From assembly GCA_017520185.1 (NCBI GenBank), contig JAFXGO010000031.1, positions 1-62,517 of the forward strand: a stretch of DNA of 62,517 bases, read 5' to 3'. How positions within the stretch are numbered: the first letter of the stretch is position 1; every line of letters begins with the position of its first letter. The notes under the pieces were generated by a model that searched no databases, was not told the origin of the DNA, and was given only the letters and a program-made list of their open reading frames with translations. This document shows, piece after piece, positions 38,028 to 60,913 of the stretch. The position numbers were made by a program, and so were the translations under genes. This stretch comes from Elusimicrobiaceae bacterium (lineage in GTDB: Bacteria; Elusimicrobiota; Elusimicrobia; Elusimicrobiales; Elusimicrobiaceae).

Positions 38028-39521
38028 TCAATCTTTGCCTTTATCGTTGTTAGTTAACACTTCTTCGGCGGAAGAAAAACCGGCATCTATCCCTTTTTCT
38101 GAGGCATATTGTTTTAAAGAATTAAGCATATCTTGACCGAATTTTTTACCGCCCGATTTTCCGTTCAAATCCGTCGCATTGGTTTTTGTACCCATTTTAT
38201 CGGTTGCCGCGGAAGCCAATTTATCAGATTGTTTGGAAAAATCAAAATAACTGATCACAATCGCCGCCACCATCAATGCACCCATCACAATACCGGCAAT
38301 GGCCCAACCCTGTTCCTCTTTATACTTGTCTATGTATTGCCAACAATCTGCTATGTAAAAACCGATAAGCGCCAACATAGCCGCCCCCAAAACAAAAGCC
38401 ATTACTTTACTGGTAGTATCCCCTTTCATTAAAGAATTAATTGTTAATCCAGCCGCCACTGTACCTGCCATCAAGAAAAACATATTTTTCGCCAAACGGC
38501 TTCTGTGTTCTTTTCTTTCTTCTTCCGTGGTATCCAATTCATCAATGGCTGTATTGAGATTTCTTTCCGTATTATTTAATTTATTTTCAAAATCTTCCGC
38601 CCCTACGGCCCATTCTGACGTATCCAAAGAATCCCCCAACATCTGCATACCCAAAGCGCGTTGGTCCTCACTCATAAATACCTGCGAATGAGAGTTCGCC
38701 TGCTTGCTGCTAGCGGCGGCCACTTTGGCAGACTGCACCGCTATGCCGCGCAAACTGTTTCCTGCGCGACTGTTTGATCCCCCTTGCCAGCGCACCTGTT
38801 TGGCTGAAGAGTCAGCTGACGGATTTTCATTTAAACTTGCCAAACGAGGCAGGTTCGTTTTTCTTTTTTCAAATCCGGTAGAAATAGATTGGGGACCTAG
38901 CATGGCAGAATTGACTTGCTCCGCGCGCGAATTAGGCACATTTCCATAGGGAGCAAAAGAGGAAGAAGATCCCTCCGCATTTACTTTTGGCATGGAAGCG
39001 CGAGGCAAACTGCCTCTGTCCTCACCCAATTTATTAACAACGGTTTGATGAGCCGCAGAAACGGCATCACCCACACCGACCCCATTAACAGAGGAAGCGC
39101 CGTCAGCATCTTTTCCGTTCGGGCCGATTTCCGTCGCACCTTGATTTAACCCAAGGCCGGCCTCTCCGCCGCTAAATACCGTTCCTTCAGTTTGTTCGGC
39201 ATCTATCGTCAAAGAAGAAACTGCCTCTTCCGATTCGTCTAATTGGGCCAACTCGGCCTTCGCGAAGGGATATTGCTCCTCAGCGAAAGCCAAATTTGCC
39301 CCTTGATTATTAATGTGTATAGAAGAATATTCGCTAGGTAAATTTTCACCGGAACGTATAATTTGGCTTAAAGACTTTACCTTTTCAGGCATAGAATCTG
39401 CCGGATCGGTGGCATAATTATAAACGCCCAATGCCGCCCAACCACCAAGCACTACTGCACCCAGCAGGCCGGTCTTACGAATAGCACCTGTTCTATTGCT
39501 CCATATTTTTCGAATATTCAT
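38028..39521 (-). CDS. Membrane-anchored Gly/Ser-rich protein, duplicate copy B
   Basis: The 497-residue product has a basic head and N-terminal membrane helix (about 16-36), a Ser/Gly/Ala-rich exported stretch (40-260) with EGTVFSGGEAGLGLNQGAT, a helical segment (IAVQSAKVAAASSKQ, then QVFMSEDQ), a coiled region, and about three more membrane helices (345-425). It shares these blocks with the gene at 39819, for example YNYA(T/S)D, SLSQII, and FSGGEAGLG. AGGAG precedes the ATG. The function is unknown. Confidence 0.8.
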   Translation of the reverse strand: MNIRKIWSNRTGAIRKTGLLGAVVLGGWAALGVYNYATDPADSMPEKVKSLSQIIRSGENLPSEYSSIHINNQGANLAFAEEQYPFAKAELAQLDESEEAVSSLTIDAEQTEGTVFSGGEAGLGLNQGATEIGPNGKDADGASSVNGVGVGDAVSAAHQTVVNKLGEDRGSLPRASMPKVNAEGSSSSFAPYGNVPNSRAEQVNSAMLGPQSISTGFEKRKTNLPRLASLNENPSADSSAKQVRWQGGSNSRAGNSLRGIAVQSAKVAAASSKQANSHSQVFMSEDQRALGMQMLGDSLDTSEWAVGAEDFENKLNNTERNLNTAIDELDTTEEERKEHRSRLAKNMFFLMAGTVAAGLTINSLMKGDTTSKVMAFVLGAAMLALIGFYIADCWQYIDKYKEEQGWAIAGIVMGALMVAAIVISYFDFSKQSDKLASAATDKMGTKTNATDLNGKSGGKKFGQDMLNSLKQYASEKGIDAGFSSAEEVLTNNDKGKD

Positions 39522-39543
39522 TTATAAACTCCTGCAAGGACTC

Positions 39544-39810
39544 TTAGTTGGAAAGAGATACAGTCCCCACCACTTGTCCTTGATTGTACTCTCTGCGCAG
39601 TTGCGCTTCTTTGCGCCTTTTGTCATACTCTTGCTGACGCGCTCTGCGCTCTTGAGCAACCTGATTGAGAGCCTTGATATAAATCAATTCCCGTTGGGCT
39701 TGGCGATGCTGGGCCGAAAGGTGCAAGTAGCCCACTACCAGCAAGATAATAATCACCCACGCAAAAGCTACAGAAAATATGGTTTTTAGTCTGCTATCTA
39801 CTTTTGACAT
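39544..39810 (-). CDS. Small membrane protein, duplicate copy A
   Basis: The preferred ATG at 39810 (MSKVDSRLKT) follows GAGGT and gives 88 residues. One membrane helix (about 13-32) is followed by AQHRQAQRELIYIKAL and a basic coiled stretch, ending in AQLRREYNQGQVVGTVSLSN. Compared with the copy at 37774, the central part has diverged while both the HRQAQRELIY motif and the tail are nearly identical, so the ends are under constraint. It starts 8 bases after the gene at 39819. Confidence 0.78.
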   Translation of the reverse strand: MSKVDSRLKTIFSVAFAWVIIILLVVGYLHLSAQHRQAQRELIYIKALNQVAQERRARQQEYDKRRKEAQLRREYNQGQVVGTVSLSN

Positions 39811-39818
39811 AGCGCACC

Positions 39819-41306
39819 TCACCCATTTTTCAGTCCGGATTTATCATCATCACCAAACAACATCTTTCCTTCTTCAATGGCATTAGTGATAGACATACCG
39901 GGACCTAGAGTACCTAAAACAGCTCCCGCAAGCAAAGACACGCCCATATTGGTAGATAATGCTCCTGTGGCAATATTATTAAACCATGTTGTCACAGCTT
40001 TACTAACCCATGCAAAAACTACACCAGTCGCAAACACGGCTGCCATTGCTATACCGGCAATTGCCCAGCCTGAGCCCTCTTTGTATTTGTCAATATATAC
40101 AGCACAATCTGCAACAAATAAACCGATAAGACCCGCCAATAACGCAGTGACCGCAATAGCTACCACAAGTCCCCAAGGCTTATTACTTTTCATCGTTGCA
40201 ATAGTCATCATACCCAAAAACGTGGTAAACAATAAACTAACCATCTGCTTTTGCAAACGAGTACGATGGTCTTTACGTTCTTGTTCGGTGGTGTCTATTT
40301 CGTCAATTTTGGCACCTAAATTACCCTCTTTGTTTTTTAGATCTTCTTCAAAATCTTCCGCCGCACCTACGCCGCTATCTCCGGCACCTACATCATCACC
40401 TACCGCATGCGTACCTAAGCCTTGTTGAGAAGAAGCCATAAACACTTGCGCATGGGAGTTTGTTTGTTTATGACGGGCGGCCGCCACTTTGGAAGACTGC
40501 ACCGCAATATTTTTCAAATCACGCCCCATTGGGCTATTGATACCGCCTCTGTAATTTACATTTCTATTCGGAGCGACAAAACCCGAGCCGGTGGCTCCTC
40601 TTAAACTGGCAGGCGCGTGAACTAAGGTCGTACCTTCTAAGCTGGGTATACCGGAAATAGAAGACGGACCCACCGGTGTAGCAGAAGGAGTGCCACTGGG
40701 GCTAACACCTGCATTACCGTACGGAGAAAAAGACGAAGCCCCGCCTGCATTTACAGTAGCAATAGAGGCACGTTTTAAGCCGCCGTTGTTTACACCGGCC
40801 TCGCCTAACTTATTGATAATGGTTTTATTGGCGGCCTCTACGGCATCCCCACCGCTACCGCCATTATTACCGCTACCGCCTGCGCCGGCACCGCTACCGT
40901 TGGGGCCCACTTCCACCGCACCTTGATTAAAACCAAGTCCGGCTTCCCCACCGCTAAAAACAGTGCCTTGCACGTTAATGGGGTCAATACCCTCTAAGGC
41001 TTGTACCTGTGCTTCTCCTCCGTCAAAGCTGGCTAATAAGGCCCCTTCTTGAAGGGCGCGCTCCTCAGCAGAGGCAAACTCCACACCGCGAGCGTCTAAA
41101 TTAATGCCGGAATATTCTCTTGGCAACTCCCCACCGGAAGAAATAATCTGGCTTAAAGAACGAACTTCCGGTTGTAAGGCTGCCGGTCTATCCGACGCGT
41201 AATTATACACGTTTAATGCCACCATACCGCCTGTTAAACTGACTGCAAACAAGCCGGCTTTACTGATAGCACCGATTTTGCTTTTTAAAAGTTCTAAGAC
41301 TTTCAT
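39819..41306 (-). CDS. Membrane-anchored Gly/Ser-rich protein, duplicate copy A
   Basis: The ATG at 41306 (MKVLELLKSK) follows GGAGGG and gives 495 residues. It has an N-terminal membrane helix (about 15-34), a long Gly/Ser/Asn low-complexity segment (polyglycine near 140-155), the IAVQSSKVAAARHKQ helix with QVFMASSQ, a coiled region ending TTEQERKDHRTRLQKQ, and several membrane helices in the last 150 residues. It is a paralog of the gene at 38028. A hydrophobic tail distinguishes it. No known domain was recognised. Confidence 0.8.
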   Translation of the reverse strand: MKVLELLKSKIGAISKAGLFAVSLTGGMVALNVYNYASDRPAALQPEVRSLSQIISSGGELPREYSGINLDARGVEFASAEERALQEGALLASFDGGEAQVQALEGIDPINVQGTVFSGGEAGLGFNQGAVEVGPNGSGAGAGGSGNNGGSGGDAVEAANKTIINKLGEAGVNNGGLKRASIATVNAGGASSFSPYGNAGVSPSGTPSATPVGPSSISGIPSLEGTTLVHAPASLRGATGSGFVAPNRNVNYRGGINSPMGRDLKNIAVQSSKVAAARHKQTNSHAQVFMASSQQGLGTHAVGDDVGAGDSGVGAAEDFEEDLKNKEGNLGAKIDEIDTTEQERKDHRTRLQKQMVSLLFTTFLGMMTIATMKSNKPWGLVVAIAVTALLAGLIGLFVADCAVYIDKYKEGSGWAIAGIAMAAVFATGVVFAWVSKAVTTWFNNIATGALSTNMGVSLLAGAVLGTLGPGMSITNAIEEGKMLFGDDDKSGLKNG

Positions 41307-41370
41307 AAGTCCCTCCGACCTCATTAATTAAAATATTTACAAATACTGACAACAACTCTTTACTGCACAT

Positions 41371-51540: not shown

Positions 51541-52662
51541 TTATAAAGTTTTTTCAGGTTCCAGCACAAGCAATGAACGATTCTTGCCCGCATCATCAGG
51601 TAATTGCACCGCTTTTACGGTACATTTTACATTTTTATTTTCCACAATACTACGTATTACTTTGGTCGGGTTTTCCAAAGCCTCACCCACTACCTGAATA
51701 ATGCTCTGCTGACGACCATCAAAAATATCTAACAAGTGTACAGGACCTTGCTTATTAACATTCAACTCAAAATTGGTATATAAAATATTGTTATTTTCAT
51801 CGATTACCAAAGCTCTTGAACCGCGCGGAACAGTGACGGCCAAAATGGTTTTCCACCATTTTTGCTCTTTTTCCAAAGACATAATTTCCACATTTTCAAG
51901 GCCTTTTATTTCTTCTCTGATTTTAACCAGCAAAGCAGCTATAGAATCCGCCACTTCTCCTATTTCATCGGAGCGAGAAGAAAATGGCAATTCCAACCGG
52001 TTTAAAGAAACAGAATCCACACTGTCTCTTAACGATTCCAGCGGGCGAATAATCTTTAAAAGCAAGAACAAATACAATACCCCGCCAATCAAAATCAACA
52101 TGATAAAAGCGCCCACCGCATAGCGAATCATGGATTGGCGAATTAATGATTTGGCTTCGGCACGAGACACCGTTAAATTTACCACACCGGCCACCACATT
52201 GTCTTTAGCCAACAAAGGAATAGCCATATCGTAGTAATTGCCCTCATCAAACATAATAGCCCGAATGCTGCGAGAGCGAATTGCCTGCGGAATAACCGGT
52301 GTATCAAACACCACTTCGTTGTTATAATCGCTATAAGACATTTTCAAAAACTGCGTATCTTCATGCCAACGGATAGATCCGTCATCATTTAAATACACCA
52401 AGTTTTTAATACGGTCATCGTTTCTTTTCCACGCTTTCATCAACTCTGCTTCCGGGAAAGAGGCATCTTGACGCGGACGCGCCGCCAAGTTTGTCACCAA
52501 AAGCGGGGCACGAAAACGCACCATCTCGGCCATTTCATTTTGCAGTTTTTTATCAAACACGAACGTAAACATGTGATAGTAAAACATGCCGCCCATTAAA
52601 GCTGCGTAAAGAGAAACTAAAGCAAACCACAATGTCCATTTAGATGTTAATTTCATAGGCAT
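51541..52662 (-). CDS. HAMP-domain sensor-like protein without a kinase
   Basis: The 373-residue product has an N-terminal helix (10-31), a periplasmic sensor region of about 150 residues, a second helix (about 183-205), a HAMP domain (LKIIRPLESLRDSVDSVS), a coiled linker and a C-terminal PAS-like fold (SRALVIDENNNILYTNFEL). It lacks a HisKA, receiver, GGDEF or methyl-accepting region. It starts 2 bases after the TPR gene's stop. It might pass a signal to the pilus machine by direct contact. The start could also be the internal ATG two codons on. Confidence 0.75.
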   Translation of the reverse strand: MPMKLTSKWTLWFALVSLYAALMGGMFYYHMFTFVFDKKLQNEMAEMVRFRAPLLVTNLAARPRQDASFPEAELMKAWKRNDDRIKNLVYLNDDGSIRWHEDTQFLKMSYSDYNNEVVFDTPVIPQAIRSRSIRAIMFDEGNYYDMAIPLLAKDNVVAGVVNLTVSRAEAKSLIRQSMIRYAVGAFIMLILIGGVLYLFLLLKIIRPLESLRDSVDSVSLNRLELPFSSRSDEIGEVADSIAALLVKIREEIKGLENVEIMSLEKEQKWWKTILAVTVPRGSRALVIDENNNILYTNFELNVNKQGPVHLLDIFDGRQQSIIQVVGEALENPTKVIRSIVENKNVKCTVKAVQLPDDAGKNRSLLVLEPEKTL

Positions 52663-52664
52663 TT

Positions 52665-54047
52665 TTACCGAATACCGGTTAATTCCTCCACCTTACGTAA
52701 ACCTAAGTCAGCGTCGGTATTGCCCGGATCCAACTGTTTCGCCACGATCCAAGCCTGACGGGCTCTTTCATAGTCGTCTTGGTTAAAAGCGTCCAAGCCT
52801 TCAATATATTTCTGGCGAGAAGCAGCGCTGGCCTCAGCAGAAACACGGGTAGCCGCACCACCGATACCGGAAGTAGTACCGTTAGCATCTGCACCCATCA
52901 CAGCCCCGCTGGCACCCGGCATTAAGGGGCTTAAGCCACTGCCTTCCACCATCACCGTTTCCACTTCTTCTTCTTCAAGCAACTCTTGTTCAGCGGCTTC
53001 TTCGGCTTTTTTCTGTTCTTCAGCCGCTTTGCGGATAGCCTCTTGTTTACGTTTCAAAGCATTTTCTTTGGCATTGCGCGCATTTTTAATTAAGCGATCC
53101 ATCTCAGACTCATCTGCACCCCATTTTTTGGCATTGGTCCAGTAGTTGATGGCAGAATCGTACCTTTTGCTCCTAAAGGAGCGATTCCCTGCCGTATAAT
53201 AACTTTGGGCGATTTCATCCTTCAATTGGCTCATATATTTTTGTACGCGTTGGTCACCCGGCTGAATTTTGGTAATTCTTTCAAATACGGCATAAGACTC
53301 CAAAAATTGGCCCTTATTATAATAATCCATCGCTTGTTCCATCGCCTCTTTTACTTGTTGTTGACGCAATAAGTTTTCGGTTTGGGCAATTTTATTAACC
53401 AAAGAGGGATCATCTTTGCGAATTAACAAAGCATTGTACCAGTTATCCAATGCTGTTTGATAATCCAGTTTATCATAAGCCACATTCCCTCTGCGGGCAT
53501 ATTCTTGAGCAATTTCCTTATCAATGCGTTTCTTCCAAGCGGTTGCTTTGGAATTATACGGCTGAATAGTTAAAATCTCATCCAATTTTTCATTGGCTTC
53601 TACCAAACGACCGGATTGATACATGCGGTTTGCTTCTTGGAATTTGGCCTCAATCACTTCTGATTCTGAAATCGTACCGTAAGCCCCCATGTGACTGGCC
53701 TGTTTGGCTAATGTAGAGGCTTGAGTAAAGTTAGGATCAATACTTAAAATGGTTTGAGCCATCTCTTGGGCACGCTGATAGTCCCCTCTGCGATAAAGGG
53801 TATAAGCATTCTCATACACTTGGCGCAACATATAATTTTGTACACGTTGTTTTTCAAGTTGTACGGTGGAAAGGTATTGCTTCTTTTCTTCCACATCGTT
53901 TAAGGTGCCTAAAGAAACCTTATTCAAATCCAACATCATACCTTCTTCTTTTCCGTGTTGGCGGATAGAATTAGGCTGACGAAGCGGGGCCGATACAACC
54001 CCCACTGCAACTGATAAAAGTAGCAAACTCAATAGATGTTTTTTCAT
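52665..54047 (-). CDS. tadD: TPR protein of the Tad locus (TadD-like)
   Basis: The 460-residue product has a signal peptide (MKKHLLSLLLLSVAVG to SAPL) and several TPR-type repeats, such as AYTLYRRGDYQRAQEMAQTILSIDP and GNVAYDKLDYQTALDNWYNAL, with an acidic Glu/Ala stretch (QKKAEEAAEQELLEEEE) near residue 350. A final TPR ends the protein. In Tad systems TadD is a TPR lipoprotein; this one has no lipobox. The symbol is assigned by position and repeat type only. Confidence 0.7.
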   Translation of the reverse strand: MKKHLLSLLLLSVAVGVVSAPLRQPNSIRQHGKEEGMMLDLNKVSLGTLNDVEEKKQYLSTVQLEKQRVQNYMLRQVYENAYTLYRRGDYQRAQEMAQTILSIDPNFTQASTLAKQASHMGAYGTISESEVIEAKFQEANRMYQSGRLVEANEKLDEILTIQPYNSKATAWKKRIDKEIAQEYARRGNVAYDKLDYQTALDNWYNALLIRKDDPSLVNKIAQTENLLRQQQVKEAMEQAMDYYNKGQFLESYAVFERITKIQPGDQRVQKYMSQLKDEIAQSYYTAGNRSFRSKRYDSAINYWTNAKKWGADESEMDRLIKNARNAKENALKRKQEAIRKAAEEQKKAEEAAEQELLEEEEVETVMVEGSGLSPLMPGASGAVMGADANGTTSGIGGAATRVSAEASAASRQKYIEGLDAFNQDDYERARQAWIVAKQLDPGNTDADLGLRKVEELTGIR

Positions 54048-54059
54048 AATATATCCTCT

Positions 54060-54944
54060 CTAAAAACCGAGCCCCTGCGAAAGCAGGCCTTTAATCATCG
54101 GCGACAAGATTAAAATAAAAATCGTCGGAAAAATAAACACAAACAAAGGGAATAGCATCTTCGTAGATGCCTGTGCGGCCAATTTCTCGGCACGGCTCAT
54201 GCGGCGGCTACGCAAGTCAGAGGAGAAGTTTCTTAACAATTCCACCAAACTTGTACCTAATTCGTCAGATTGAATAATAAGCCCCACCAAAGAACGCACT
54301 TCCTGCACCCCCGTACGATTGGCAAAACGTTCTAATGCTTCACGTCGAGAATAACCCAACTTAATCTCATTCAGCGTTTTTTCCAATTCTTCTTCTAAAA
54401 TAGTTTTTTTCTTGGCAATACTAATAATTCTTTCAAAGGCGGTTAAATAGTCCAAACCGGATTCAATAATCAAGGCGGCCAAATCTACCGTAGTAGAAAA
54501 GTTGCCCAAGATTTCGGCCTGTCTTTTTTGGATTTTACTTTTAAAAATTAAATCCGGCAAATAAAAACCCAAAGGAATAAATAAAATACCCCAAATGGTC
54601 TGAAACATCAATATAATAGCCGCTGGAAAGACCATTGCAAAAATAATCTTGTAATCCAAAATATCCACCGGCTGAGGTTGATCCGGACTGCCCAACTGCA
54701 TATGCATCTCTTCCAAAGGCTTTTCTAAATGAAAAACATTTAAGCAGAACACCGCCAAGCGGTCCTTCCATTTGTTTTCCGGTTGCAAACGAGAAAAGCT
54801 AGAGGAAGACTTGAAACGCTGCGCGGCCACGTCTACAATTCTGTCTCCGTCCTTTTTAGGAGCAAAAAGATTCAAGACTCCCAAAAATATCGCTCCGGTC
54901 CCGATCAACAAAATGATAAGCAACAAGAAAGATAAACCGTCCAT
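54060..54944 (-). CDS. tadC: Tad secretion inner-membrane protein TadC
   Basis: The 294-residue product has a T2SSF domain: an N-terminal helix (5-25), further hydrophobic segments around 105-145, the FSTTVDLAALIIESGLDYLTAFERI stretch, and a final helix pair (MLFPLFVFIFPTIFILIL). It ends GLLSQGLGF. TadB and TadC form the inner-membrane platform driven by TadA. It starts 2 bases after the TadB stop. Confidence 0.9.
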   Translation of the reverse strand: MDGLSFLLLIILLIGTGAIFLGVLNLFAPKKDGDRIVDVAAQRFKSSSSFSRLQPENKWKDRLAVFCLNVFHLEKPLEEMHMQLGSPDQPQPVDILDYKIIFAMVFPAAIILMFQTIWGILFIPLGFYLPDLIFKSKIQKRQAEILGNFSTTVDLAALIIESGLDYLTAFERIISIAKKKTILEEELEKTLNEIKLGYSRREALERFANRTGVQEVRSLVGLIIQSDELGTSLVELLRNFSSDLRSRRMSRAEKLAAQASTKMLFPLFVFIFPTIFILILSPMIKGLLSQGLGF

Positions 54945-54946
54945 AA

Positions 54947-56569
54947 TTATACCTTAACCTCTCCGAGTTTTTGGATAAGTTTCATACCAATCATAATCCA
55001 GACGAAACAACCGAACAAAACGATTAACCCCACCGGTGTAGTATAGAAAGCAAGCATTTCTTCTGGGCGGAACATAAACATCACACCCAACATAATCACC
55101 GGCATAATACCCACGACCATAGCCTGAATCTTCTGTTGCGCTGTCATAGCGTCCAACTTTTCTTCCAATTTGCTTTCTTCACGAATATTTTCTACCAAGC
55201 GAGAGAAAATAACCGTCAAATTACCACCGACTTGGCGTTGAATAATAATAGCTTTAATGATGTAAGAAAGCATACGGCTTTCCACACGTTCATCTAAGCC
55301 TTCCAATGCCTTTTCAAAGGGAGTACCCAACTGATAGTTTTTCACTACCAAGCCGAATTCATCAGATATCGGCGGTTGCAAGTCATGAGATACCAACTCA
55401 AATCCTTGTACGATATCCATACCGGAACGTAAAGAGTTGGAAAGTAAAATCAACGAATCCATCAACTGAGCATTAATTTTGCGACCACGACTTTTTTTAA
55501 GTTTATCCAATACAATAGCCGGCATCTGAATGCCCAAATAAGCGCCCACTGCCAACACCACAAAAAACATAAATACTCCGCCAAAACCGCCTATAGAAAC
55601 ACCCATTAACAACCCCAAAAAGGCAAAAACAGCCACTGTACCAAAAACAATGTATTTCACGTCAATGGTTAAAAATTGGCGGTTAAAATCTTCTGCCCAA
55701 GCAGTACTCTTTTCTTTGTAGCGGTCCCAACCATCCAATAATTCGTTTTTCTTTTCCGACAGAAAAAGATAAACGGCACCCGCAGCAAGCAAACAACCTA
55801 TCAATATCAAAAGCGTGGCAAAAAGACGATCCCCATCCGTATCCATATAGATTTTGGCATCGGGATGTTCCATCGGAATAGGCTTGGCAAAAAATTCACT
55901 CCACAATTGGTTGGCCAACACCACCACAGCCATTACAGATTGACGGTATTTATCTTCTTTTTGAGAGGCCGGACTGGTAAAAGACTCCACCGTGCTATAA
56001 AATTCACGGTTCATAAATTCCAAAGTGGCTAACATGGCACGGGCACGCCCTTGCAAACTATCTTTCATGTTATAAACCTCTTTACCACGCACTAACTCTT
56101 TGTTTAAACGGTCCAAGTGAGAAACCAAACGGATACGATTGCTCACATAGCCGCGAGACAACTGCTCCAGCACGACCGGCTGACTAGGATCCAATGCATT
56201 ATTGGCACGATCCAAATAAGAAAATATCGTAGCAAAAACACTATACCAAAGTTTGGCTTCGCTCAATGTCCCTTGTGTGGGGATATAAACCACTTTTTGG
56301 GCTTCCATGCGTTCCAACTCCGCTGGAAACCATTTGGGAACAGATATTGATTTTCCGGCCAATCTTTCACCGCAAACGTCCGGATAAACGGCATTTTTTT
56401 GTTCAGCAGGACGATCTACATCAAAAAACCCTGCCAACACCTGCATTTTAAATTCGGCACACTCTATTTTAGCCTTATCATTTGCGTTTAATGCACGCGC
56501 CAAAAGCCCCTGCGGGGCAAGCAGGCTCAAAACAAACAAAGCAATGATTAAAAATACCGTTTTTTTCAT
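54947..56569 (-). CDS. tadB: TadB with an extra exported N-terminal domain
   Basis: The 540-residue protein has a signal peptide (MKKTVFLIIALFVLSLL to LARAL), an extra exported domain of about 220 residues (25-245; two Cys; mostly helical), a membrane helix (250-271), and then a normal TadB: two helices (304-348) and a T2SSF domain (LMDSLILLSNSLRSGMDIVQGFEL) with terminal helices (483-500, 512-532). TadB is usually about 300-330 residues, so the first half is an addition. It would form the platform with TadC. Confidence 0.88.
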   Translation of the reverse strand: MKKTVFLIIALFVLSLLAPQGLLARALNANDKAKIECAEFKMQVLAGFFDVDRPAEQKNAVYPDVCGERLAGKSISVPKWFPAELERMEAQKVVYIPTQGTLSEAKLWYSVFATIFSYLDRANNALDPSQPVVLEQLSRGYVSNRIRLVSHLDRLNKELVRGKEVYNMKDSLQGRARAMLATLEFMNREFYSTVESFTSPASQKEDKYRQSVMAVVVLANQLWSEFFAKPIPMEHPDAKIYMDTDGDRLFATLLILIGCLLAAGAVYLFLSEKKNELLDGWDRYKEKSTAWAEDFNRQFLTIDVKYIVFGTVAVFAFLGLLMGVSIGGFGGVFMFFVVLAVGAYLGIQMPAIVLDKLKKSRGRKINAQLMDSLILLSNSLRSGMDIVQGFELVSHDLQPPISDEFGLVVKNYQLGTPFEKALEGLDERVESRMLSYIIKAIIIQRQVGGNLTVIFSRLVENIREESKLEEKLDAMTAQQKIQAMVVGIMPVIMLGVMFMFRPEEMLAFYTTPVGLIVLFGCFVWIMIGMKLIQKLGEVKV

Positions 56570-56578
56570 GAATATTTC

Positions 56579-58858
56579 CTATAATACCGGTGGTGCGGGA
56601 GGTACACTTAAACTGGAAAGAATCGGGTTTCCTTCTTCATCTAGTTTAATAGCACCTTTGGTAAACACTTCTTCCGGCACAGGTACACCTTTTGCTTGGA
56701 AATCGCTATAAAAAGTAGGCAAATTACCCGTAGGAGCAAACAAACCTTGCACTTTTCCGTTTTCATCAACACCGGTTTGCACATAACGGAACAAATCTGT
56801 AGATTGGATCTGCCCATCTTTTTGACCATGCATTTCCGTAATATAGGTCACTTTTCTGGACCCGTCAGAAAAACGGGACAACTGTACAATCATGTTCACA
56901 GCCGAAGAAATCATTTCGCGAATAGCAAAAATCGGCAAATCGGCCCCTGTCTGCATGCACATGGCTTCCAAACGAGATAAACCGTCACGCGGTGTGTTGG
57001 CGTGAATAGTAGTCAAAGACCCTTCGTGACCGGTGTTCATGGCTTGCAACATATCCAAAGCCTCTCCGCCACGACACTCCCCTACTACAATACGGTCCGG
57101 ACGCATACGCAAGCAGTTTTTAACTAAATCTTGAATAGTAATAGCACCCTTTCCTTCCACGTTGGGAGGGCGGCTTTCCAAAGACACCCAGTGCGGTTGT
57201 TGCAAGCGCAACTCTGCCGTATCTTCTACCGTAATAATACGTTCATTATCAGAAATATAACCTGACAACGCATTTAAGAAGGTTGTTTTACCGGTACCGG
57301 TACCACCGCAGACAATAATATTTTTACGAATTCTAACGCATTTCTCCAAGAATTCCATACATTCCGGACTAATGGTGCCGAAACGGAAATAATCGGCCGG
57401 TCCAAACGGTTTTTGAGAGAAACGACGGATGGTCAGTGTCGGACCGGAAACCGCCAACGGAGAAATGATGGCGTTGACACGGGAACCGTCTTTCAAACGC
57501 GCGTCCACCAAAGGCACAGATTCGTCAATACGACGGCCTAACGGGGATACAATACGCTTGATTACTTGTACCACTTGTTCATTGTTTCTAAATTTGTACT
57601 TGGTTAAGGTCAATTTACCTTTTTGTTCGATAAAAATTTTATCAAAGGCATTGACCATGATTTCTGTGACGCTGGGATCTCTCATCAAGTTTTCTAAAGG
57701 TCCCAAACCCAAAATTTCATCTAAAAGTTCCGAAGCGAAGCGAGTTCTCTGTTCGCGAGAGAACTGCAAGTTCGGTTGTTTTTGTAGGATATCATCTACA
57801 ATCGCCGCCACACGTTTGCGTGTTTGAACGCTGGCTGAACTTTCATCACTAATGACAATGCGTTCAATTTCCAGCGTACGCACAACATCTTTGTGAATTT
57901 TTTGTTTTAAATCGTCCCAGAAAGAAAGTTTGGTTTTACCGGCTTCTCCTTCTTCTTCTACCAATACATGGCTTTCTTGCCCCGCACCATCTGCAGAGCC
58001 ACCGGCAAAAATAGGATTCCAAATTTCTTTGGCGGCCTGCGTAAATTCTTCATCACTTACAGAAGCAGACCAATCTTTGGGGGCGGGAGTCAAATCTCTA
58101 ATTTTAGCCAAAACTAACCGCAACCCTTTGATCCATTCCGACTGAGGATTGGAAATAATTTCCACTTCCTTGCGGTTGGAGGTAGCCATAATGCTTTCGT
58201 CCCAAGGCAAAAACACATCAATATCGCGGCCCAAAGAATTATAAAACTTTTCCACTTCTTCGTACGCAATAGATCCGGGCATATCATATTGATTACAAAT
58301 AACACTCACCCGTTCCATCGGATAGCGTTGTTCTTTATAATCATTGAAAAGCTGTACGGTAGAATTTAAATGCGTACGAGTAGCGTTAGATACCCAAAAA
58401 ATCTTATCGGCTATATCAAAAGCAAAAGCCTGCATCGGAAAGCTGGAATCCACATCTAAAAAGATATCAAAAGTCTGAGACAAACGAGACAAAATGGGAA
58501 CTAAAATTTTCGGGCTGATGGAAGCCACTTGAGCGCGCGAATTTCCCAGCGGCAGCACCCCTACTCCCCACTGAGACATAGAAACTTTACCACGCAACAA
58601 CCCCCCCACTACGGCAATATTAGTATTGCCTAAAGTGCGCAAAATATCAGCCACGCTTACAGGTTTTTTGATATCCAAATAGAAACTATGCTCTTGACGT
58701 GCCAACGGATCTAATGGCACTATCAATACGGGACGTTTTTGGATACCGGCCCAACCTAACGCTAAGTTCAACGTAAGCGTTGTTTTACCAGCCCCTTCTT
58801 TCGGGCTGCTAAGCGCAATAATTTTGGCTTCGTTTTTAGGGGTTTCAAGTTCAGCCAT
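56579..58858 (-). CDS. tadA: TadZ-TadA fusion ATPase
   Basis: The 759-residue product joins two normally separate Tad proteins. Residues 1-255 are MinD/TadZ-like, with a Walker A-type [13 protein letters not shown] and a [11 protein letters not shown] strand. A linker (255-330) leads to a TadA/CpaF ATPase with [14 protein letters not shown] (518-531), a Walker B in [16 protein letters not shown], and the His-box [19 protein letters not shown]. TadA powers pilin assembly; TadZ places it at a cell site. The fusion would fix them in a 1:1 ratio. It ends 9 bases before TadB. Confidence 0.92.
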
Positions 58859-58866
58859 AGTTGTTA

Positions 58867-59601
58867 TTATTCCACCACTTCAACAGTAATAAACAGGAAG
58901 AGAGATCTTTGCTCTTCGGTGACGTCTTTGTATTTAAACAAAAGGCCCAACAAAGGGATACGTCCTAAGAAAGGCACACGGTTTTCACTGACGTTGCGAT
59001 AACTGCTTTTCAATCCGCCGATTACCAATGTTTCACCGCTGTTCAGTTCAACGTGAGTTTCTACATCACGGTTGGTAAAAGAAGGAGCGGTAGCCGTACC
59101 TACAGACACCGTACGAGAATAGTCTACCGTAGAAACGGATAACTGCACCTGTAAGTCAATGATGTTGCCTCTTTCCGGAATGATAGTAGGCAAAACGTTC
59201 AGCAAGATACCATACTCTTCCAACTGAGATCCGACACCTTGATTATTTACCACCGGTATAGGCACTTTACCACCTACGGTGATTTTGGCTGCATTACCAG
59301 AAGCCGTGACAATCTTAGGGTTGGAAAGCACTTGAGCGCGGCCTTCGGTTTCAGACAAACGCAAACGGGTAATCACAGCTGTTTTACGTTGGAATTCGCC
59401 CAAAGACAAAATACCGGGAATATTGGCCTCTTCAAAGTCAAAGATTTGGTTCCACTCAAACCCTTTTGCTGAGGTCATCGTTCCGCCGATTTCCACCACG
59501 TCAGCACTCACAGCCACCAGACGCGTCTTCTTGGCAAATGCCGCCGGGCACGCCAAGGCCATTAACAAAACCAACAAAGTAATTTTAACCGTAGATTTCA
59601 T
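58867..59601 (-). CDS. Short secretin (RcpA/CpaC-like) without N-domains
   Basis: The 244-residue product has a signal peptide (MKSTVKITLLVLLM to AAFAKK), then a secretin C-terminal domain: SLGEFQRKTAVITRLRLSETEGRAQVLSNPKIV, the GGKVPIPVV strand, LNVLPTIIPERGNIIDLQV, and ELNSGETLVIGGLKSS then VPFLGRIPLLGLLFK. The full-length family is 450-650 residues with N0/N1 and BON domains ahead; they are missing. The pore-forming region is complete. It follows CpaB and precedes TadZ-TadA. Confidence 0.88.
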   Translation of the reverse strand: MKSTVKITLLVLLMALACPAAFAKKTRLVAVSADVVEIGGTMTSAKGFEWNQIFDFEEANIPGILSLGEFQRKTAVITRLRLSETEGRAQVLSNPKIVTASGNAAKITVGGKVPIPVVNNQGVGSQLEEYGILLNVLPTIIPERGNIIDLQVQLSVSTVDYSRTVSVGTATAPSFTNRDVETHVELNSGETLVIGGLKSSYRNVSENRVPFLGRIPLLGLLFKYKDVTEEQRSLFLFITVEVVE

Positions 59602-59612
59602 ATCACTTTTCC

Positions 59613-60365
59613 TTATTGGAATAATTTTTCAAAAGTAGCAATTTCCATTACATACTGTGCCACGTCACCGTGGGAACGTAAGATAACAGACAAAGTACCC
59701 TCATCTTTAGCCAAAGCCAAATATTGGGCATCTTTGGGAGAAAGTGCCAAGCTTAACGCACTTTGATCGGTATAAGCGGAAGCATCTTCCTCAGCATTAC
59801 GCATAGCAGCCATTGCTTTAGCATCTAAACCTTGTCCCAAGTTAGACCCTACACCTAATACTTTAATGTTTTGTAATAAAGTCACCGTCACTTTTTGACG
59901 GGCACCGCTTTTCATTACCGCTTCAAAAGTAAGCAATACGTCCACGTTGTCATCGGGCTTAATCATACTGGCAACATTGGAGTCTACCGTAATGACAAAA
60001 CCTCTCATCTGTACAGGGATTTTACTAGACAAACCAGCCTCCGGAGAAAGAGAGGTGACGGCATATTTAGAAATTTGGTTTCCTTTCGGAATCTGTACAC
60101 GAGCAATGGCATTGTCAATTTTGGCAAAATCAGCATCCGTAGTGTAAATGAAGGCATCTTTTTGCACATAGGCCGCCGGTATTTGTACACGTTTTAAATA
60201 TTCACGTTTAATCACTTCGCGTTCTTTAATATCACGCACCGGCACTAAAACCGTTTTAATCGTTTTAGAACTATTCAACTTCTTTTGGGCGTTATTAACA
60301 ATAAGCCCATATACTAAGGCTGCAAGCAATGCCAAAACAAATGGCAACAATAATCCTTTTTTCAT
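59613..60365 (-). CDS. cpaB: Tad pilus assembly protein CpaB/RcpC
   Basis: The 250-residue product has one N-terminal helix (4-22), a SAF-type domain (VLVPVRDIKEREVIKREYL, then IPKGNQISKYAVTS), and a RcpC/CpaB beta domain (RGFVITVDSNVASMIKPDDNVDVLLTF). It is thought to lie in the periplasm and link the secretin to the inner-membrane parts. AAGGAGAAAAA precedes the ATG. It is followed 11 bases later by the secretin. Confidence 0.9.
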   Translation of the reverse strand: MKKGLLLPFVLALLAALVYGLIVNNAQKKLNSSKTIKTVLVPVRDIKEREVIKREYLKRVQIPAAYVQKDAFIYTTDADFAKIDNAIARVQIPKGNQISKYAVTSLSPEAGLSSKIPVQMRGFVITVDSNVASMIKPDDNVDVLLTFEAVMKSGARQKVTVTLLQNIKVLGVGSNLGQGLDAKAMAAMRNAEEDASAYTDQSALSLALSPKDAQYLALAKDEGTLSVILRSHGDVAQYVMEIATFEKLFQ

Positions 60366-60421: not shown

Positions 60422-60913
60422 CTACTTTTTAGGGTCAGAGCTGGCATATATTTTTTCGACCGGCATACGTGTGACTGCCTCTACCTTGCGAATGCCGTCC
60501 TTTTTGGGTTCACTGGCTAGCAACCAGCTAGTTCCGGGAAAAGCCAACTCTATCGGATAAACAACCGTCACCACAACATCTTCATGACGGTGAGCCGTAT
60601 ACATCGGGTCTACACCCGTTGATTCTATTTTTACACCTACTGTAATACGGTCTGCATCAGCACCAAACACTTTACGCTTTGCAGCATTAATTTTATTTTT
60701 AGCCGTACTGGAGTTTGCTTTACCGCTAGGCTTATTGGCGGCCACCAAAGCTCCGATACGGGCAAATTCATAGGAAGCGTGATTGGCTATAATCGTGTGA
60801 TAGGCAATATTTCCATATTCCAAGATAAAGAATATCATCAACATCAGCACCGGCAGAATAAGCATCAATTCCACCGTCACTTGCCCTTCACGCTCCCTAC
60901 GAAAAAGTTTCAT
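60422..60913 (-). CDS. tadE: TadE-like minor pilin
   Basis: The 163-residue product opens REREGQVTVELMLILPVLML, the TadE processing site (Gly then Gln, Glu five residues on) and membrane helix; the remaining part is an external beta-rich domain. It is the first minor pilin gene after the two Flp pilins. About 17 bases lie between it and the Flp gene at 60931. Homology to TadE rests on the N-terminal motif and position. Confidence 0.85.
   Translation of the reverse strand: MKLFRREREGQVTVELMLILPVLMLMIFFILEYGNIAYHTIIANHASYEFARIGALVAANKPSGKANSSTAKNKINAAKRKVFGADADRITVGVKIESTGVDPMYTAHRHEDVVVTVVYPIELAFPGTSWLLASEPKKDGIRKVEAVTRMPVEKIYASSDPKK

What the first reader, a model, noticed from the sequence alone, without database searches (positions are those of the whole stretch)
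54947..56569. TadB with a large extra periplasmic domain
The first 245 residues carry a signal peptide and a helical exported domain before a normal TadB core. This doubles TadB length and may replace a missing periplasmic part such as the N-domains that the short secretin lacks.
Basis: partly seen in the sequence, partly recalled or inferred. Interest (0 to 1): 0.57.

Follow-up and report, generated by a model that had tools for sequence, protein, structure and literature searches.

The report
Pilus motor protein with periplasmic domain
In a class of gut and environmental bacteria, the inner-membrane motor protein of an adhesion pilus carries a large extra domain outside the membrane, and the same domain is elsewhere fused to the ring protein that guides the pilus, which suggests it ties the motor to that ring.

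Summary
Window 54947-56569 (minus strand) is one 540-aa gene: signal peptide, a ~220-residue exported helical domain ("NDOM", residues ~26-246), then an ordinary TadB core. It is not two genes: no stop lies in the domain, the junction Met codons lack a ribosome-binding site, and NDOM is under purifying selection. The host is an Elusimicrobiaceae-type gut bacterium (Elusimicrobiota). NDOM-TadB is conserved almost class-wide in one fixed Tad operon. NDOM matches no family in Pfam, NCBIfam or PDB sequences, and its confident model (pLDDT 91) resembles only generic helical bundles.

Equally short secretins (231-259 aa) occur in sister classes whose TadB is ordinary. Two new facts point to the alignment ring instead. 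NDOM also occurs fused to the RcpC/CpaB domain (18 loci), beside a gene that in one family is secretin-N-domain (STN)-RcpC. And systems with NDOM-TadB have a CpaB without the C-terminal tail that 27 of 30 sister-class CpaBs carry. Best explanation (inferred): NDOM tethers the TadB/TadC platform to the CpaB ring. New variant of a known kind.

The parts
54947..56569 (-). NDOM-TadB, 540 aa, single gene
   Evidence: ORF and translation; T2SSF PF00482 E 2.7e-17; homologues fused likewise
56577..56580 (-). Shine-Dalgarno AGGA, 7 nt before the ATG; overlaps the TadA stop codon
   Evidence: sequence
56495..56569 (-). signal peptide, residues 1-25 (hydrophobic 5-23)
   Evidence: hydrophobic N-termini in homologues
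55832..56494 (-). NDOM, residues 26-246: predicted periplasmic helical bundle with two small beta hairpins; Cys37 and Cys66 invariant in alignment A1
   Evidence: alignment A1, AlphaFold2 pLDDT 91.3, pTM 0.87
55760..55816 (-). first TM helix of the TadB core, residues 252-270
   Evidence: hydropathy, helix 245-272 in the full-length model
55076..55447 (-). T2SSF cytoplasmic domain of TadB, residues 375-498
   Evidence: Pfam, PF00482 genome search
54060..54944 (-). TadC, 294 aa
   Evidence: T2SSF E 3.5e-15
56579..58858 (-). MinD/TadZ-like + TadA ATPase fusion, 759 aa
   Evidence: CbiA 1.5e-7 and T2SSE 1.7e-62; TIGR03819 3.1e-99, below its cut-off
58867..59601 (-). short Tad secretin, 244 aa, secretin domain only
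   Evidence: PF00263 4.6e-42 residues 84-244; nearest PDB match RcpA 8odn
59613..60365 (-). CpaB/RcpC, 250 aa, ends just after the RcpC domain (no C-terminal tail)
   Evidence: PF16976 4.3e-19, TIGR03177 1.9e-33, alignment and tail comparison
60422..60913 (-). TadE-like pseudopilin
   Evidence: PF07811 6.6e-12
52665..54047 (-). TPR protein of the same conserved operon
   Evidence: PF07719 2.9e-14; conserved neighbour
51541..52662 (-). HAMP-domain membrane protein of the same conserved operon
   Evidence: HAMP 3.8e-4, below its cut-off; conserved neighbour

Best explanation
NDOM is a periplasmic docking domain of the Tad pilus machine. The signal peptide exports residues ~26-246, and the first TM helix of the TadB core keeps them at the membrane surface. 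There NDOM binds the CpaB/RcpC alignment ring and so ties the TadB/TadC assembly platform to the conduit that leads to the secretin. Shown by sequence: one gene, export signal, near class-wide conservation in a fixed Tad operon, a second home of the same domain on the RcpC domain, and absence of the usual CpaB C-terminal tail in systems with NDOM-TadB. Inferred: the physical contact with CpaB, and that NDOM takes over the job of that tail.
For: One exported-domain + TadB gene in relatives. CpaB, short secretin, TadZ/A, NDOM-TadB and TadC lie together in 16 of 16 f2 loci (TPR gene matched in 15, HAMP gene in 14) and in 20 of 20 further loci across the class. The same domain sits N-terminal to an RcpC domain in 18 loci of families f2 and f7 (Pfam RcpC E 1e-5 to 5e-5 in the 4 scanned first, under the curated cut-off). 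In f7 the adjacent gene is STN-RcpC (STN E 1.5e-10 and 2.1e-10, RcpC E 4.6e-9 and 4.6e-10), so RcpC domains pair with secretin-type N-domains and with NDOM. CpaB tail: 0-9 residues in 38 of 38 NDOM-TadB loci against 30-49 in 27 of 30 loci of sister classes. Residues invariant across both fusion types in A1 include W80, S103-E104, W108, D153-R154, S171 and G174-R175 (protein numbering). In P. aeruginosa RcpC forms a dodecameric ring that binds RcpA through its C-terminal L3/beta-hairpin region, and an RcpC-TadABC sub-complex is only proposed (PMC12307814, passages and Discussion read).
Against: No direct test of contact: no complex could be predicted. All NDOM-TadB proteins lie in one class, so the CpaB-tail contrast may be one evolutionary event. 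Three sister-class CpaBs (L281, L285, L287) lack both tail and NDOM. Homology of the tail to the P. aeruginosa L3/hairpin was not shown (9gzr matched only at E 0.052, over other residues). The RcpC-fused copies read in context lie behind an ECF sigma gene, not beside Tad genes. Three stand-alone NDOM copies exist. G241 has a Tad locus in the same class without NDOM. The fold matches nothing specific.
Confidence: 0.5

Rival explanations
1. NDOM replaces the N-domains that the short secretin lacks: it would stack under the secretin barrel and close the gap.
For: The secretin has only ~60 residues between signal peptide and secretin domain. STN domains, typical of secretin N-termini, are fused to RcpC next to NDOM-RcpC in f7.
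Against: Equally short secretins (231-259 aa in 23 of 27 out-of-class loci) coexist with ordinary TadB. G241 has a short secretin without NDOM. No STN/Secretin_N match; helical model. TadB is anchored in the inner membrane, far from the secretin (established topology, not tested here).
Confidence: 0.12
2. NDOM is a periplasmic sensor or substrate-binding domain (helical-bundle type) that reads pilin, peptidoglycan or a small ligand and gates pilus assembly through TadB.
For: Helical-bundle fold; four-helix ligand-binding domains such as Tsr are among the middling structural matches (Z 8). An RcpC-fused copy sits behind an ECF sigma gene, and a HAMP protein is in the Tad operon.
Against: Those structural matches are generic for bundles by the tool's own note. 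The joining to RcpC points to a structural partner. The conserved residues were not tested for a pocket.
Confidence: 0.2
3. NDOM only helps folding, insertion or stability of TadB in this lineage and has no partner of its own.
For: NDOM changes faster than the core (about 26-30% against 50-58% identity to family f2).
Against: 12 invariant columns across TadB- and RcpC-fused copies, dN/dS 0.01-0.18, and existence apart from TadB.
Confidence: 0.12
4. The N-terminal region is a separate gene or an artefact of ORF calling.
For: None found.
Against: No stop codon in any of the matches; no ribosome-binding site at the junction ATGs; signal peptides directly precede the domain in homologues.
Confidence: 0.01

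Closest known systems
TadB/TadC inner-membrane platform of Tad (type IVc) pili
   Same: T2SSF domain, TM layout, gene order beside TadC and TadA
   Different: ordinary TadB has no domain before its first TM helix (sister-class frames 267-327 aa); here ~246 residues with a signal peptide
RcpC/CpaB alignment complex of Pseudomonas aeruginosa (PMC12307814; PDB 9gzr)
   Same: CpaB with the RcpC domain is encoded in the operon; a periplasmic ring between platform and secretin is the expected arrangement
   Different: CpaB here ends at residue 250, right after the RcpC domain; NDOM is not an RcpC relative but appears fused to RcpC elsewhere
RcpA secretin (PDB 8odn)
   Same: nearest solved relative of the window's secretin (E 4.5e-23)
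   Different: match covers only the secretin domain (RcpA chain residues 210-370); the window's protein has 82 residues before it, signal peptide included
VWA-domain TadB proteins of Gram-positive bacteria (recalled, no call)
   Same: recalled as another case of an extracytoplasmic domain ahead of TadB
   Different: Pfam finds no VWA domain in this protein

Membership tests
TadB | T2SSF domain over the curated cut-off | tested here: met
   63.3 bits, cut-off 25.2
TadB | adjacent TadC and TadA in a Tad operon | tested here: met
   conserved in loci
TadB | usual length of about 270-330 aa (not a formal criterion of the family) | tested here: not met
   540 aa; sister-class frames 267-327 aa. The core alone (~285 aa) meets it, so the protein is a TadB with an added domain
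Tad pilus system | TadA, TadB, TadC, CpaB, secretin and TadE together | tested here: met
Tad pilus system | Flp pilin and prepilin peptidase TadV | not tested
   not searched
Secretin N-domain (STN / Secretin_N) | Pfam sequence match of NDOM | tested here: not met
   none of 46 members
Secretin N-domain (STN / Secretin_N) | mixed alpha/beta N-domain fold (recalled) | tested here: inconclusive
   model mainly helical; Foldseek/VIA rows are generic bundles
RcpC/CpaB alignment-complex protein | RcpC (PF16976) domain within NDOM-TadB | tested here: not met
   only T2SSF found; RcpC is in the separate CpaB gene
Alignment-complex component (functional) | physical contact with CpaB | not testable with these tools
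   only single proteins can be folded; inferred from fusions
VWA-TadB | VWA domain before the core | tested here: not met

The most novel reading that the evidence does not exclude
NDOM is a new, exported Tad component module, without a described family, that covalently links an inner-membrane platform protein to the periplasmic alignment ring, taking the place of the CpaB C-terminal tail used in sister lineages; RcpC domains are hubs to which either NDOM or secretin-type N-domains are joined.
Probability: 0.4. Interest if true: 0.68.

Novelty: new variant of a known kind. Interest (0 to 1): 0.52.

Why it matters
How the RcpC/CpaB ring is joined to the TadA/B/C motor is only proposed in the one structural study read (PMC12307814). 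A lineage in which TadB carries a periplasmic domain that elsewhere is fused to RcpC would make that link testable with two small soluble constructs, and adds an undescribed domain to the Tad parts list.

Tried and rejected
Separate-gene reading: rejected. Replacement of secretin N-domains: tested by co-occurrence and not supported. Known-family reading: Pfam for each of 46 NDOMs (four stray families, best E 0.0037, none shared by more than 3 members), NCBIfam for the full protein (only a sub-cut-off TIGR01218 at E 0.0052, residues 240-342), PDB by sequence (0 hits; three hits, best E 0.4). Fold search: Foldseek against PDB had no match at E<=0.001 (best E 0.35); VIA-align best Z 10.0, rmsd 2.8, 114 aligned, a designed helical bundle, followed by unrelated bundles; nothing is concluded from that absence. 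The full-length model is weak (mean pLDDT 75, pTM 0.44) and is used only for helix positions. A conserved disulfide as a general feature: rejected, the Cys pair is invariant in A1 but the f7/f8 copies printed lack it. Presence outside the phylum was not tested beyond the family libraries and PDB. The viral structure library was not searched. Literature: searches for TadB with periplasmic domain, N-terminal extension, von Willebrand, RcpC/CpaB/TadB/secretin, and Elusimicrobia/Elusimicrobiota with Tad or pili listed no paper that, by its title or the start of its abstract, describes this domain; apart from PMC12307814 (outline, passages, Discussion) and PMC6668835 (passages), I saw only listings.

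Full report
What is there. The window is a whole contig (G000:C31) of a 1.4-Mb genome. The closest named relatives are gut Elusimicrobiaceae/Elusimicrobiales MAGs, and the 80 loci kept are nearly all titled Elusimicrobia, Elusimicrobiales, Elusimicrobiaceae or Elusimicrobium (a few only 'uncultured bacterium' or 'bacterium'). The finding's ORF is at the stated coordinates on the minus strand, 540 aa, directly behind a TadZ/TadA-like fusion gene and ahead of TadC. Pfam recognises only T2SSF at residues 375-498. A hydropathy scan gives a signal segment at 5-23 and TM segments at 252-270, 307-325, 481-499 and 514-532; residues between 26 and 246 hold none.

One gene. The start codon has AGGA at a spacing of 7; the ATGs at residues 233 and 242 have no usable Shine-Dalgarno match; one 5-base match with usual spacing (Met168) is inside the domain. 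Residues 1-300 found relatives in 59 of 61 genomes, with no stop inside any match; the main matches lie in frames of 516-745 aa, save two shorter ones at contig ends (G001, G048). The two misses (G025, 72% complete, and G060) also lacked a TadB core. dN/dS by counting was 0.01-0.18 for the domain and 0.05-0.12 for the core in the 12 pairs shown.

The domain. Forty-six copies (42 TadB-fused, 4 RcpC-fused) align with 12 invariant columns. AlphaFold2 gives a confident model (pLDDT 91.3, pTM 0.87) with helices 4-23, 79-100, 109-131, 147-171 and 176-202 (domain numbering) and two short beta hairpins. No family or solved relative is found by sequence. Structural matches are generic helical bundles. 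Two cysteines (37 and 66) are invariant in A1, but the f7/f8 copies printed lack them.

Distribution. In 294 genomes drawn from the phylum the profile matches 169, in 36 of 90 genera; every matching genome listed is in the window's class. Two f5 genomes without a hit there (G187, G202) carry a diverged copy (E 4e-9 and 2e-7). Of 80 genomes without a hit that were given to (21 in the class, 59 outside it), 43 have a TadB core; the 38 outside the class have it in frames of 267-327 aa, i.e. ordinary TadB. G241 (class, family f11) has a 284-aa TadB with no domain, a counterexample to class-wide presence.

Operon. Around the fused gene, CpaB, short secretin, TadZ/A, NDOM-TadB and TadC recur in 16 of 16 f2 loci, with the TPR gene matched in 15 and the HAMP gene in 14 of these, and in 20 of 20 further loci from other families, where the outer genes are missing only at locus or contig ends.

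Test of the replacement idea. If the domain replaced secretin N-domains, secretins should be short only where the domain is present. They are not: 23 of 27 out-of-class loci have secretin ORFs of 231-259 aa, the other four 293-330, while the in-class ones are mostly 238-289 (36 of 38; the two longer, 310 and 480, start inside the upstream gene). So shortness is phylum-wide and the specific claim is not supported.

What correlates instead. CpaB in 38 of 38 NDOM-TadB loci ends 0-9 residues after the RcpC domain; in 27 of 30 sister-class loci a tail of 30-49 residues follows. The three without a tail (G066, G072, G078) are among the four genomes with the longest secretins; the fourth, the C108 system of G069, has a 252-aa CpaB whose profile match leaves no tail. 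Each system type thus carries one extra element: NDOM on TadB, a CpaB tail, or a longer secretin N-terminus. This rests on few independent lineages and is a pattern, not proof. G241 does not fit cleanly: its CpaB is partly N, with about 20 residues after the domain, read by eye.

A second home for the domain. In f2 and f7 genomes a second copy is the N-terminal part of an RcpC-domain protein: 18 loci. Three f7 genomes (G181, G189, G195) have a stand-alone secreted copy with a lipoprotein-like start (read by eye). A fourth 'alone' label (L302) is a TadB cut at a contig end. In the f2 loci read (L035, L036), RcpC-only and NDOM-RcpC genes follow an ECF sigma-like gene and its neighbour (Pfam for L035 only); in f7 the preceding gene is STN-RcpC (L317, L318); in L333 and L334 it is TPR-RcpC. 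The tree of 78 of the 101 copies puts the 18 RcpC-fused and 3 stand-alone copies in one clade (100/98), apart from all TadB-fused copies; it is midpoint-rooted, so direction is open, and long branches are flagged.

Mechanism. In Pseudomonas aeruginosa RcpC forms a dodecameric periplasmic ring that binds the RcpA N-domain through its C-terminal regions, and a sub-complex with TadABC is proposed, not shown (PMC12307814). Given export, position ahead of the first TM helix, exchange between TadB and RcpC, and the missing CpaB tail, the best reading is that the domain docks TadB onto the CpaB ring. Export signal and fusions are shown by sequence; the contact is inferred. Confidence 0.5.

Verdict. 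Interest 0.52.

Noticed in passing
L317:50-1390 and L318:1-1365 (genomes G130, G279, family f7): Secretin-type STN domain joined to an RcpC domain in one exported protein, next to a NDOM-RcpC gene; L317 also has a chagasin-like (Inhibitor_I42) domain.
   Followed up: partly
L035, L036, L332, L334 (family f2): Paired RcpC-only and NDOM-RcpC genes behind an ECF sigma-like gene; no Tad genes seen alongside in these 9-10 kb loci.
   Followed up: partly
L333:3107-3880 and L334:3292-4155: RcpC domain fused to a TPR stretch similar to the C-terminus of the Tad operon's TPR protein (36% over 61 aa for L334).
   Followed up: partly
L319:1522-2151, L321:1507-2319, L326:1516-2775 (minus): Stand-alone NDOM proteins with lipoprotein-like signal peptides.
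   Followed up: partly
window 56579-58858: MinD/TadZ-like and TadA ATPase domains in one 759-aa gene; full-length counterparts found across the class.
   Followed up: no
L215 (G241, family f11): A Tad locus in the same class with ordinary 284-aa TadB and no NDOM; its CpaB gene is partly unreadable (N).
   Followed up: partly
window 38028-41324: Two neighbouring ~500-aa genes are paralogues (46% over 443 aa), downstream on the same strand of TadE-like and pilus-like genes; function unknown.
   Followed up: no
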